Assembly (NCBI GenBank): GCA_021774075.1
Contig: JAJFJK010000026.1
Coordinates: 1-41,319, forward strand
Direction: 5' to 3'
Source: Nitrosomonas sp.
GTDB taxonomy: Bacteria > Pseudomonadota > Gammaproteobacteria > Burkholderiales > Nitrosomonadaceae
Length of the DNA stretch: 41,319 nt
Shown here: positions 35,416 through 39,666 of the stretch, piece by piece
Layout: the number at the start of each line of letters is the position of its first letter
Numbering within the stretch: the first letter of the stretch is position 1
Notes under the pieces: generated by a model
Seen by the model: the letters and a program-made list of their open reading frames with translations, nothing else
Databases searched by the model: none
Told to the model about the DNA's origin: nothing
Position numbers and translations under genes: made by a program

Positions 35416-36999
35416 ATGACAGAAACAATGCTCTCTATAGTTAAAAATACAAATAGGATTTTTGAAAGCTCGTCCTATGTGAAGGTAATTGATAGCATAA
35501 ATGATTATATTAATAGCAATACCAGCATCATCGTTTTAACTGGAGAGTCCGGAACAGGAAAAACCTTGCTTGCCCGGGAAATAATAAAAGACTTGCAGCT
35601 TGACTATTATGTGGTCTTTTTCAAGAATCCGTATATCATTATCGAAGAAATACTTAATTTAGCTTGTAGTCAAATCGGAGTGGATTCATCAGATCCTCAG
35701 AACAAACTGGATGAAAAAAAAATAGCTGAAATTTTTTTCAAATATCTTGAGGATAGAAGTAAGGAAAGAGGTCCGGTCAAAATTTTTATAGATGATGCTC
35801 AAGAGATTAATATCAGCACACTGAGTAATATATTGAAATTTATGAAATGGCAATCCGGTACCGAAAGAGTGTTGCAGTTAATTATGATTGGGTTGCCACA
35901 ACTTGAAACACTTCTTGCTAGTTTAGAACTACCAGAATTAGAAAACGCAAATCCCGTTTATTTGTGCCTTGAACCGCTCAATACAGAGGAGATGGGTGCA
36001 TTTATTGTGCAGCGTCTAGATACACTTGGTATTAAACAGAGCGGTTTCTTCTCCCCTGAAGCTGTTAAGAGATTCGAATTATATACACAAGGGGCTCCGG
36101 GTTTAGTTGGTATTTTGGTTGATTCTGTTTTGGCTATCATAAATTCTGATGAGTACAGTAGCATTACGGCAGAAATTGTCGATGAAGCCGTTGAATGGAC
36201 TATCGAAATCAAAAATCCTAGTGCAATTCAATTAACCAGGAATGAAGAAGAAGTAGAGCACGATAAGACAACACAAATTTTGTCAAGCAGAGAAGATGAG
36301 GAAATAGATAAAACAACTTTGATCTCAATGATTAGTAGAAAAGTAGCCGATCTGTTTTCTCGAGAAAAGTTAGTCAATGATGGGTCAGTGAATGATCATG
36401 ACGGTAAAGTTAATATTGAATTTGAAGAAAAAACTCCCTTGGCTTTAGTGGAAGAACCAAGATATCTTGCTAATAATATGGAAAGTGTTAGAGTTAACTA
36501 TGGGACACAAAGCTTAGACACTTTGGCAAAGGAAAAGGAGATTCAGTCTGTTAACAAAAAGGCAGAATCGACTTCCCCGATATCATTGCAACACAATGAG
36601 CAGATAGATACTATGAATGTGCAAGAGGAAACGATGAATAGAGCTGAACTTTTAAACAAAGAACTTAAGACTTTGCAGAATGGATCTCCTGATGTCGAAG
36701 CGGCTGCTTTGATATCAGAGGATGGGCTTGTGGTGGCAAGTGCTCTACCCCAAGATCTTGATGAAATACGCGTTGGAGGAATGAGCGCTACACTTCTTAG
36801 TCTGGGAACACGTTCTTCAGCTGAATTGCGCAGGGGAAAAGTTGAAGAAATTATCGTTCGTGGTGAACAAGGTTATACCGTCATGCTGAATGCAGGACAA
36901 GGTACGTTGTTACTAGTTGTGGCTAACCAAAACGCTAAGCTTGGATTGATTCTCTTCGATATGCGCGAATCAATAGAAAAGATAGTGGCTATTTTATAG
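35416..36999 (+). CDS. AAA ATPase (ExeA-like) fused to C-terminal Roadblock/LC7 (MglB-like) domain
   Basis: Walker A GESGTGKT, Walker B VKIFIDDAQE, sensor 'IMIGLPQLETLL'; ~150 aa low-complexity linker; C-terminal 'PDVEAAALISEDGLVVASALPQDLDEIRVGGMSATLLSLGTRSSAELRRGKVEEIIVRGEQGYTVML'. Confidence 0.9.
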   Translation: MTETMLSIVKNTNRIFESSSYVKVIDSINDYINSNTSIIVLTGESGTGKTLLAREIIKDLQLDYYVVFFKNPYIIIEEILNLACSQIGVDSSDPQNKLDEKKIAEIFFKYLEDRSKERGPVKIFIDDAQEINISTLSNILKFMKWQSGTERVLQLIMIGLPQLETLLASLELPELENANPVYLCLEPLNTEEMGAFIVQRLDTLGIKQSGFFSPEAVKRFELYTQGAPGLVGILVDSVLAIINSDEYSSITAEIVDEAVEWTIEIKNPSAIQLTRNEEEVEHDKTTQILSSREDEEIDKTTLISMISRKVADLFSREKLVNDGSVNDHDGKVNIEFEEKTPLALVEEPRYLANNMESVRVNYGTQSLDTLAKEKEIQSVNKKAESTSPISLQHNEQIDTMNVQEETMNRAELLNKELKTLQNGSPDVEAAALISEDGLVVASALPQDLDEIRVGGMSATLLSLGTRSSAELRRGKVEEIIVRGEQGYTVMLNAGQGTLLLVVANQNAKLGLILFDMRESIEKIVAIL

Positions 37000-37433
37000 C
37001 CTCATCGTTGAGAAATAATCTAAGCTTGAATCATATGTTGATCCAGTATTTAATAGAAAAAACCGGATGCTTAAAGATATGTACAACTGTTATCCTCTAC
37101 ACCTCCTTGGATTCGAGTAACGATGGGTTTGAATTACTAATGATTGCCCAAATATGTGAAAATTGTGTTTAATGCGCATGTTGTTGCAAGTGTTGACATT
37201 TTTCTTGACGTACATCGGCAACCATTAAGTTCCAGGTAAACCTTTAACAGATTTGAAAAAATTTGGCTATCGTATTTATTGTGGCTTATTTGCCTTAGCT
37301 GAATCCTTTTGAGAAGCTTTGAAATTGTACGAATAGCTTTTACGCCTATTGATCTCTTCACGGGCTTAAAAAATTTCTATCTGATATCCTTATAAGAATA
37401 GAAAAATGTTAATAAATTTTTGAATGGTTATTT

Positions 37434-38195
37434 ATGTCAAATACAATATTCTATGATGATGGTGAGCATCAAAATGTGTTGTTGGAGGATTTTGGTTCAG
37501 GTGGGATGGCAGTTCAGGCAAACCAGCATCTAATAATCCATGGAGGAGAGGGAATTATTCTCGATCCCGGGGGGCACAAGGTCTATAGTAAGGCATTGTC
37601 TGAGACATATTCTTTATTAGGCAGCAGCAAATTACGCTATATCTTTTTTTCTCACCAGGACCCAGATATCGTTGCGGCAATGAATGGTTGGTTAATGACT
37701 ACCGATGCTGATGCCTATATCTCAAAGTTATGGGTGCGTTTTGTTCCCCACTTTGGACTCGATCACATACTTGGTGAGCGACTTAAGCCGATTCCTGATG
37801 AAGGGATGTTTTTGGAACTCGGTGGTATTAGATTAATGATACTACCGGCGCATTTTCTCCATAGTACTGGAAACTTCCAACTTTATGATCCAGTGTCAAA
37901 GATTCTGTACAGTGGTGATTTGGGTGCTTCCTTAGGTATGGACTATTTGCAGGTTTCCAATTTTGATGACCATCTTCAATATATGGAAGGTTTTCATAAG
38001 CGCTATATGGCTTCAAACATTGCATTAAAGGCTTGGGCAAATATGGTTCGTAACCTTGAAATAGAAATGATTGCACCACAGCATGGTGCGTGTTTCAAAG
38101 GTGAGCATATGGTTAATCAGTTTATTGATTGGTGTGATAATTTTAAGTGTGGTATTGATCTTATTGCTGGAATTTATAAAATTCCAGCAACCTGA
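37434..38195 (+). CDS. Metallo-beta-lactamase-fold protein of the oxygen-binding diiron (ODP/FprA-like) type
   Basis: 'YIFFSHQDPDIVAAMNGWLMTT', 'PAHFLHSTGNFQLYDPVSKILYSGDLGAS', 'IAPQHGACFKG' metal-ligand motifs; no flavodoxin domain. Confidence 0.85.
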   Translation: MSNTIFYDDGEHQNVLLEDFGSGGMAVQANQHLIIHGGEGIILDPGGHKVYSKALSETYSLLGSSKLRYIFFSHQDPDIVAAMNGWLMTTDADAYISKLWVRFVPHFGLDHILGERLKPIPDEGMFLELGGIRLMILPAHFLHSTGNFQLYDPVSKILYSGDLGASLGMDYLQVSNFDDHLQYMEGFHKRYMASNIALKAWANMVRNLEIEMIAPQHGACFKGEHMVNQFIDWCDNFKCGIDLIAGIYKIPAT

Positions 38196-38232
38196 ATTTG
38201 TCGCACTAAGACAAAGCAATTTGGGATAAAGA

Positions 38233-38985
38233 ATGCCCGGAAATTTAGATAATTCAAGTAACGTTTTTGAGACATACCCTGTCAAAGGTGAATCTATATC
38301 TTTATGGGTTCCGCTGTGTTTAGGACTGCTTGGAATAATTGTTAGTGTGTTAATTTCCCAATCGTTATTATCCGCCCATATAAAAATGGATAGTTTATTG
38401 TCATGGCCCTCCACTACTGGCGGTAGTCAACATGATCAGGAAACAAAGAAATCAATTGATAAAAACACAACTGAATTGCTGGAAGGAAAGGTTGAGAATG
38501 GGAAATTTGTAGAGGTAAACCAGAAAAAAATAATACCATCAGTTATCAATGAGGGCAGTAAAAGTAGCCCAGTTGAATCGGATAAAATAGAGCTCAAGAA
38601 AACAAAAGATTGTCCACCACTTTTCTTCTTTACTTTTTCCAAGTCTAGTGAAATCCCCAAAACCCATAATTTAATGCCAAAAATAAAACGACTAAGTGAT
38701 TGGCTTCAACAACACCCGAACAAGAAAGTTTTCATTGACGGTCATACAGATTCATTTGGAACAGAGGAGTACAATTTACTTCTTAGTTACCGCCGTGCCA
38801 AAGCTGCAGAGAAAATCCTGGTTGCAGCGGGCATCTCAAAAGACCAGGTGATAGCAAGAGCATTGGGCGAGCAAGAATCCCTGCAAGGACATTCCGCCCA
38901 ATCCAAAGAAAACCGCCGGGCTTCAATCAGAATTGAAGCTCTTAAAGAGTGTATTAATTCGTTGATAAATGAGGAGTTAAACTAG
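38233..38985 (+). CDS. Membrane-anchored OmpA-like (peptidoglycan-binding) domain protein
   Basis: N-terminal TM 'SLWVPLCLGLLGIIVSVLISQSLL', C-terminal 'VFIDGHTDSFGTEEYNLLLSYRRAKAAEKILVAAGISKDQVIARALGEQ...NRRASIRIE'. Confidence 0.9.
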   Translation: MPGNLDNSSNVFETYPVKGESISLWVPLCLGLLGIIVSVLISQSLLSAHIKMDSLLSWPSTTGGSQHDQETKKSIDKNTTELLEGKVENGKFVEVNQKKIIPSVINEGSKSSPVESDKIELKKTKDCPPLFFFTFSKSSEIPKTHNLMPKIKRLSDWLQQHPNKKVFIDGHTDSFGTEEYNLLLSYRRAKAAEKILVAAGISKDQVIARALGEQESLQGHSAQSKENRRASIRIEALKECINSLINEELN

Positions 38986-38988
38986 TTT

Positions 38989-39666
38989 ATGGTCACAGCC
39001 ATTATTTCAGGTTTAGCTGCCGCCACCATGTTGCTTCTGGCGGGTTATTTATTTGGTGTTAAACAGGGTCATCAAGCCAGGGAAAAATTACGGGAGCATC
39101 TTTCCGAACAAAGAGACTTGAAAATTGATGCGTTATTGCAACAAAGTGATACTTTGCAGCGCGTGATCGAGCCATTAACCAAGTGGGATGTTCAGGTTGA
39201 AAAATTGCGTGCTGATATTAAACAAATGCAAGGCAACATGATACATCATGATCTGGTTGCTGTAGAGTTAACAGGTTTGCAAACTAGCACTAAGAATCGT
39301 GGTGATTTGGCTATTTTAATGGATGAGATTTCCGAAAAAGCACGCCTTGAAGCGGTCTTACTTAGTGACGAGAATGGATTACCTTTAGTAGCGAGTAGTA
39401 ATGCAAAGAATATTGACCTAATAGCTGCGATTGCATCTTTTGTGGTGATTTTTGGAGATCGAATCAGTCGCGATGATGCTAATGCCTGCCCCGTTTCTTT
39501 TCTGGTGCGAGACAACAATGATAGAGACATTTTATGTCGAATTTTTCATGTGGGCAATCAAAGGCTTGTTCTAACTGCGGTATCAATTAATCAGAAACTT
39601 ACACCTAGTGCACTTGATCCTACCTTAGAAAAAATGATCAGTTTATTGTCACCCAGGATTCAATAG
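38989..39666 (+). CDS. Membrane-anchored Roadblock/LC7-like protein
   Basis: N-terminal TM, coiled-coil, then 'ILMDEISEKARLEAVLLSDENGLPLVASSNAKNIDLIAAIASFVVIFGDRI' resembling a Roadblock fold; 3 bp downstream of the OmpA-like gene. Confidence 0.7.
   Translation: MVTAIISGLAAATMLLLAGYLFGVKQGHQAREKLREHLSEQRDLKIDALLQQSDTLQRVIEPLTKWDVQVEKLRADIKQMQGNMIHHDLVAVELTGLQTSTKNRGDLAILMDEISEKARLEAVLLSDENGLPLVASSNAKNIDLIAAIASFVVIFGDRISRDDANACPVSFLVRDNNDRDILCRIFHVGNQRLVLTAVSINQKLTPSALDPTLEKMISLLSPRIQ

What the first reader, a model, noticed from the sequence alone, without database searches (positions are those of the whole stretch)
35416..39666. Candidate system: AAA-Roadblock ATPase + ODP diiron sensor + OmpA anchor + membrane Roadblock protein
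Four consecutive plus-strand genes combine domains I do not know to be described as one system: an ExeA-like AAA ATPase fused through a long polar linker to an MglB-like Roadblock/LC7 domain; an ODP-type diiron MBL-fold protein (relatives bind O2 and can act as chemotaxis sensors); a single-TM OmpA/peptidoglycan-binding protein; and a single-TM coiled-coil Roadblock-like protein. The last three are tightly spaced (37 bp and 3 bp gaps). Roadblock proteins normally regulate Ras-like GTPases (MglA), but no GTPase is present here, so the AAA domain may be the switch. Hypothesis: an oxygen/redox-responsive, cell-wall-anchored positioning or signalling complex.
Basis: partly seen in the sequence, partly recalled or inferred. 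Interest (0 to 1): 0.82.

Follow-up and report, generated by a model that had tools for sequence, protein, structure and literature searches.

The report
Oxygen-sensor Roadblock wall-anchored gene cassette
Four neighbouring genes in a probable Nitrosomonas form a conserved cassette, found in three classes of Proteobacteria and in Myxococcota, that joins an oxygen-binding protein to two Roadblock proteins and a cell-wall anchor; it looks like an undescribed gas-sensing signalling or positioning complex that works without the usual Ras-like GTPase switch.

Summary
All four genes are real: AAA+Roadblock (A), ODP (B), OmpA (C), membrane Roadblock (D). D, unseen by Pfam, folds as MglB.

Three findings go further. 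(1) In Myxococcota the sensor slot holds ODP in 7 of 10 loci and a protoglobin (haem O2-sensor family) in 3. Two unrelated gas-binding folds in one slot argue for diatomic-gas sensing. Mariprofundaceae have Roadblock-ODP-Roadblock, often with protoglobin and a small GTPase nearby. (2) AAA is optional (6 of 24); the Roadblock domain of A is the conserved part, so AAA is not the core switch. (3) No MglA/CvnD-like GTPase was found in seven cassette-bearing proteobacterial genomes, while the same profile found GTPases in Myxococcota and positive controls.

Best reading: an O2 (or NO) sensor acts on a Roadblock pair tethered by D to the inner membrane and by C to peptidoglycan. Output unknown; mechanism inferred. 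No paper found describes it; the globin-Roadblock fusion HGbRL is the nearest precedent.

The parts
35416..36999 (+). Gene A: ExeA-like AAA ATPase fused to an MglB-like Roadblock/LC7 domain, cytosolic (no TM)
35515..35916 (+). AAA_22 domain of A, Walker A GESGTGKT (residues 43-50), Walker B IFIDD (123-127); optional module of the cassette
   Evidence: present in 6 of 24 cassettes
36658..36924 (+). Roadblock/LC7 domain of A, the conserved core of A
   Evidence: 52-90% identity across cassettes
37434..38195 (+). Gene B: ODP, diiron metallo-beta-lactamase-fold O2-sensor family; conserved metal-site residues H74, D76, D78, H140, D162, H217
   Evidence: PF19583 E 1.8e-71; 6qrq E 3e-76; residues invariant in A4
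38233..38985 (+). Gene C: single-TM protein with OmpA-like peptidoglycan-binding domain
   Evidence: TM residues about 22-42
38275..38307 (+). C, short pre-TM cytosolic segment YPVKGESISLW, member of a GE[DSR]xP-like pattern conserved in most C proteins
38644..38916 (+). OmpA domain of C (residues 138-228)
   Evidence: PF00691 E 8.7e-18; motif; binding not tested
38989..39666 (+). Gene D: N-terminal TM with near-invariant AGYLFG motif, coiled coil, C-terminal Roadblock fold (residues about 104-222)

Best explanation
The four genes encode one complex. The ODP (diiron) subunit binds O2, or another diatomic gas, in the cytosol and changes the state of a Roadblock pair made of the Roadblock domain of A and that of D. 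D holds the pair at the inner membrane by its conserved TM helix; C, beside it, ties the assembly to peptidoglycan and may dock through its short conserved cytosolic segment. The gas state of the sensor thereby sets the assembly, placement or activity of a wall-anchored membrane complex, without a Ras-like GTPase. In this organism A additionally carries an ExeA-like AAA ATPase as a lineage-specific effector or assembly module. Shown here: gene identities, conservation, sensor swapping, optional AAA, no detectable GTPase. Inferred: physical complex, A-D pairing, gas as the input, direction of the signal. Unknown: the output.
For: 24 complete cassettes in the same order in alpha/beta/gamma-Proteobacteria and Myxococcota. 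Sensor slot: 10 of 10 Myxococcota loci have either ODP (7) or protoglobin (3) (PF11563 E 8e-31 and 5e-28), and those globins match known haem O2 sensors 5ohe and HemAT and keep an invariant His and Tyr. Mariprofundaceae: Roadblock-ODP-Roadblock in nearly every genome seen, often plus protoglobin. ODPs next to Roadblock genes form a side of the ODP tree separated from solitary ODPs at 100/100. ODP metal-site residues invariant. D folds as MglB. C has one TM and an OmpA domain. No small GTPase by three profiles in most proteobacterial carriers. A published globin-Roadblock fusion, HGbRL, joins the same two functions in one chain (PMC4476040).
Against: No physical interaction, gas binding or phenotype is shown. 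Mariprofundaceae and gammaproteobacterial relatives of the modules lie beside small GTPases, so GTPase independence may be secondary. In MAG G382 A-B and C-D are on different contigs. No output gene is common to all cassettes. ODP and protoglobin can both bind NO as well as O2.
Confidence: 0.55

Rival explanations
1. A and D are still regulators of a small GTPase encoded elsewhere, as MglB is for MglA; the ODP makes the GTPase cycle oxygen-dependent.
For: Fold of D and A is MglB-like. Mariprofundaceae and gammaproteobacterial relatives have a small GTPase next to the Roadblock genes. Myxococcota carriers and G389 have GTPases elsewhere.
Against: No hit to the GTPase profile in three Nitrosomonas, one Dechloromonas, two Bradyrhizobium and one Methylococcaceae carrier, with positive controls at E below 1e-85; PF00025 hits in the ten carriers lie only in long frames, the size of translation GTPases; PF03029 absent from most carriers.
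Confidence: 0.2
2. The system senses nitric oxide or cellular redox/iron state rather than O2.
For: Diiron and haem sensors both bind NO; carriers include ammonia oxidisers, methanotrophs and denitrifiers, which meet NO. The TREND paper describes ODPs as oxygen and iron sensors (PMC7319448).
Against: The characterised ODP of T. [quoted passage not shown] established knowledge). The data here cannot separate the gases.
Confidence: 0.15
3. The AAA ATPase of A is the core motor (ExeA/GspA-like), assembling or opening an envelope machine; the other genes are its regulators.
For: Intact Walker A and B motifs, ExeA-like relatives; ExeA joins AAA to peptidoglycan binding, here supplied by C.
Against: AAA is absent from 18 of 24 cassettes while the Roadblock domain of A is always present.
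Confidence: 0.07
4. Chance neighbours brought together by horizontal transfer.
For: Patchy distribution (2 of 350 genomes of the order), a transposase-like ORF beside it, cassette G+C 38% against 44% for the window.
Against: Order kept across two phyla at 30-80% protein identity in unrelated neighbourhoods. Transfer as one unit is likely, chance adjacency is not.
Confidence: 0.03

Closest known systems
MglA-MglB polarity/motility system (Myxococcus xanthus)
   Same: MglB-like Roadblock folds; both A and D resemble MglB
   Different: No MglA GTPase in the cassette or detectably in most proteobacterial carriers; here a gas sensor, a TM anchor and a wall anchor
ODP oxygen sensor of Treponema denticola chemotaxis (TDE2498; 6qrq)
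   Same: Same ODP family, same metal-site motifs, no flavin domain
   Different: Partner there is a chemoreceptor homologue and CheA; here Roadblock proteins and no chemotaxis genes; the cassette ODPs form a separate side of the ODP tree
Group 1 Rup gene neighbourhoods (Wuichet and Sogaard-Andersen 2014, PMC4316618)
   Same: Signalling locus with a TM-OmpA wall-binding protein and a coiled-coil protein
   Different: Rup loci contain a Ras-like GTPase and a c-di-GMP enzyme or kinase, and are not described with an O2 sensor or a Roadblock pair
HGbRL, globin-Roadblock fusion of Methylacidiphilum (PMC4476040)
   Same: Haem gas-binding domain coupled to a Roadblock domain
   Different: One fused protein of a different globin family, reported only from Methylacidiphilum, no ODP, OmpA or membrane Roadblock
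Streptomyces conservons (CvnA-D)
   Same: Roadblock protein (CvnB; 3leq) in a conserved four-gene signalling locus
   Different: Conservons have a histidine kinase and the GTPase CvnD, no O2 sensor and no OmpA anchor

Membership tests
Oxygen-binding diiron protein (ODP, PF19583) | Sequence membership and length without a flavodoxin domain | tested here: met
   PF19583 E 1.8e-71, 253 aa, no other domain; 6qrq E 3e-76
Oxygen-binding diiron protein (ODP, PF19583) | Conserved diiron-site residues (HxDxD, H, D, H) | tested here: met
   Aligned with 6qrq and invariant in 12 cassette ODPs; ligand roles from established knowledge of the family
Oxygen-binding diiron protein (ODP, PF19583) | Binds O2 at a diiron site | not testable with these tools
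   Needs spectroscopy
Roadblock/LC7 (gene A C-terminus) | Robl_LC7 domain above the gathering score | tested here: met
   54.1 bits against a cut-off of 23
Roadblock/LC7 (gene D C-terminus) | Robl_LC7 profile match | tested here: not met
   No PF03259 hit for D itself, though the homologue P0030 carries it
Roadblock/LC7 (gene D C-terminus) | Roadblock fold | tested here: met
   AlphaFold2 model, PDB matches to MglB with probability 1.00 and TM-score by target up to 0.72
MglA-MglB system | Cognate small GTPase encoded nearby or in the genome | tested here: not met
   None in the cassette and none in the window's genome by three profiles; the draft is 91% complete
Chemotaxis-linked ODP system | MCP or CheA genes beside the ODP | tested here: not met
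   None among the genes between and beside the cassettes inspected; no dedicated CheA profile was run
OmpA-like peptidoglycan-binding proteins | OmpA C-terminal domain with binding motif, one N-terminal TM | tested here: met
GspA/ExeA ATPases | AAA domain followed by TM and peptidoglycan-binding domain | tested here: not met
   AAA with Walker motifs present, but no TM and a Roadblock domain instead
Group 1 Rup loci | Rup GTPase in the locus | tested here: not met
   No GTPase ORF in the cassettes

The most novel reading that the evidence does not exclude
A new class of bacterial signalling complex: a gas sensor of exchangeable fold (diiron ODP or haem protoglobin) directly controls a GTPase-free Roadblock heteromer tethered to membrane and cell wall, so that oxygen itself sets the placement or activity of an envelope complex in bacteria living at oxic-anoxic boundaries.
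Probability: 0.4. Interest if true: 0.85.

Novelty: new variant of a known kind. Interest (0 to 1): 0.7.

Why it matters
Bacterial Roadblock proteins are understood mainly as partners of small GTPases. In a 2014 survey 328 of 749 MglB relatives had no GTPase gene nearby, and no such orphan had been characterised experimentally at that time (PMC4316618). This cassette gives a conserved, testable job to one group of them: receiving a gas signal and holding it at the cell wall. It would add an oxygen-response route besides chemoreceptors, kinases and c-di-GMP enzymes in ammonia oxidisers, methanotrophs, photosynthetic Bradyrhizobium and iron oxidisers, all of which depend on fine control of oxygen exposure.

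Tried and rejected
Chance adjacency: rejected by 24 loci. AAA as core switch: rejected, the domain is optional. MglA-type GTPase elsewhere in the window's genome: PF00025 hits all lie in frames of 380 aa or more; PF03029 and a custom GTPase profile give none. Chemotaxis operon: no Che-like gene among cassette neighbours. The first genome-contig scan with gene A found nothing (patterns too specific) and was repeated with the D alignment. Longest-ORF gene calling in GC-rich loci gave wrong frames, so tblastn was used. Consensus promoter and terminator scan was at chance level. D against PDB by sequence gave nothing significant, hence the structure comparison. The primary ODP paper (PNAS 2019) is not held, so whether it mentions Roadblock neighbours could not be checked. 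The remaining structure job was not used.
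Full report
1. The observation. Pfam confirms AAA_22 plus Robl_LC7 in A, ODP in B and OmpA in C. D has no Pfam family. It belongs to a family of at least 40 proteins, one of which carries PF03259. Its AlphaFold2 model has the Roadblock order of helices and strands, mostly at 75-92 pLDDT in that part, and its 18 best PDB matches are Myxococcus MglB chains, followed by LAMTOR, p14/MP1 and Asgard Roadblocks. 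B aligns over its whole length with the solved T. denticola oxygen-binding diiron protein (6qrq, E 3e-76), with the HxDxD, H, D and H motifs in register; these residues are invariant in the cassette family.

2. Where it lies. The window is contig C144 of a 3.5 Mb draft genome. The genus is probably Nitrosomonas: the closest named genome carrying D is a Nitrosomonas MAG (72% identity). D is rare: 2 of 350 genomes of the order; 7 of 399 in the phylum, of which only the two of this genus are strong; 19 of 242 in Myxococcota, about ten strong.

3. It is a conserved cassette. In a second genome of the genus the four genes stand in the same order in a different neighbourhood, downstream of ORFs that read like hslU and hslV. 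One scan of genome contigs with the D alignment brought 16 loci. Tblastn of the four proteins shows Roadblock-ODP-OmpA-D in order in gamma- (L027-L032), beta- (L033) and alpha-Proteobacteria (L034, L036-L039) and in Myxococcota (L040). Nine more Myxococcota loci (L041, L099-L106) complete the set: 24 complete cassettes with the window and L022, counting those with protoglobin in place of ODP. They are not all independent (four Bradyrhizobium, two near-identical Methylococcaceae). L035 and L055 are cut by contig ends. In MAG G382 A-B and C-D are on different contigs. The Methylocystaceae locus L037 has two extra Roadblock proteins.

4. The sensor slot. All ten Myxococcota cassettes read Roadblock - sensor - REC-DUF4388 - OmpA - D. 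The sensor is ODP in seven (L040, L099, L100, L101, L103, L104, L106) and protoglobin in three (L041, L102, L105) (PF11563 E 8e-31 for L041 and 5e-28 for L102). These protoglobins match the globin-coupled histidine kinase 5ohe and the aerotaxis transducer HemAT and keep an invariant His and Tyr, so they look like working haem sensors. Two unrelated folds whose shared property is binding O2 (and NO) occupy one slot. This is the strongest evidence here that the input is a diatomic gas. In Mariprofundaceae (named through a contig-length match to a Mariprofundus micogutta record) the ODP lies between two soluble Roadblock proteins in nearly every genome seen, often with protoglobin or a small GTPase downstream. 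Gammaproteobacterial relatives of the A Roadblock lie beside a small GTPase (L115-L117), with a protoglobin (L116) or a PAS protein (L117) next to them. In a tree of 35 ODPs the Roadblock-linked ODPs and the solitary ones separate with 100/100 support; the root is unknown and some branches are long.

5. What is core and what is added. AAA occurs in 6 of 24 cassettes (window, L022, L027-L030). L031-L033 have little or nothing before the Roadblock domain, alphaproteobacteria have an extension of about 150 aa, several Myxococcota have the bare 121-aa domain, and database relatives have REC. The AAA is therefore a lineage-specific attachment. C has a single TM, an OmpA domain with the usual motif and, just before the TM, a short GE[DSR]xP-like pattern present in most members but not in L102 and L105, two of the three protoglobin loci. 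That is suggestive of a contact with the ODP module but far too few cases to prove it. D has one TM with a near-invariant AGYLFG motif followed by positive residues, so its Roadblock domain should be cytosolic.

6. No GTPase. PF00025 hits in ten carrier genomes all lie in long frames, not MglA-size. PF03029 is absent from the window's genome and most carriers. A profile of the Roadblock-linked small GTPases finds none in three Nitrosomonas, one Dechloromonas, two Bradyrhizobium and one Methylococcaceae genome, one in G389, weak MglA-like hits (many in frames of about 200 aa) in the Myxococcota carriers, and E below 1e-85 in the two positive controls. So in most proteobacterial carriers the cassette must work without a detectable GTPase of this kind. 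Two of these genomes (G006, G383) are complete single chromosomes; the others are drafts.

7. Mechanism. The simplest reading is a gas sensor docked on a Roadblock pair anchored to the membrane (D) and the wall (C). The pairing of A with D is inferred from the known tendency of Roadblock proteins to dimerise and from the Roadblock-ODP-Roadblock trios. The output is unknown. Two-component genes (PAS/histidine kinase, REC-DUF4388) accompany the cassette in Myxococcota, so the output may differ by lineage.

8. Known or new. Searches of 5.39 million open papers for Roadblock with ODP/diiron/OmpA, with protoglobin and with related terms found no description of the cassette. The nearest are the ODP chemotaxis sensor (PMC7666581), ODPs noted in operons with varied signal-transduction genes (PMC7319448), Rup loci with a TM-OmpA protein (PMC4316618) and the globin-Roadblock fusion HGbRL (PMC4476040), which independently links a gas-binding protein to a Roadblock domain. 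The primary ODP paper is not held and may already mention some of these operons. I rate this a new variant of a known kind; if GTPase independence and direct gas control were shown it would be a kind of its own.

Noticed in passing
window 39986-40882 (-): Transposase/integrase-like ORF (weak rve match, below cut-off) just downstream of the cassette; with the low G+C of the cassette it fits transfer as a unit.
   Followed up: partly
window 31258-31361 (+): Match to Rfam RF02820 (Vibrio RNA AS9), 52.5 bits against a gathering score of 50, antisense to the ribBA-like gene 30367-31458; possibly only a coding-sequence match.
   Followed up: no
L149-L154 (Mariprofundaceae): Clusters of up to five small Roadblock-like genes around ODP, protoglobin(s), a small GTPase, a conserved protein of unknown family (about 210-230 aa) and a metallophosphoesterase: a larger Roadblock toolkit in microaerophilic iron oxidisers.
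   Followed up: partly
L115-L118 (Gammaproteobacteria): Different Roadblock operon: small GTPase, unknown protein of about 215 aa, Roadblock close to the A type, with protoglobin or PAS protein; in L115 and L117 an OmpA-like and a TM coiled-coil gene lie nearby.
   Followed up: partly
window 36658-36924: The closest solved relative of the A Roadblock domain is a Thorarchaeota (Asgard) Roadblock, 7f8m, E 9e-26, ahead of any bacterial structure.
   Followed up: no
L102, L105: Two of the three protoglobin cassettes lack the GE[DSR]xP-like pre-TM pattern in gene C, hinting that this segment contacts the ODP module.
   Followed up: no
window 32176-33561 (-): MltF-like protein: solute-binding domain plus lytic transglycosylase SLT domain, an ordinary neighbour.
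   Followed up: no
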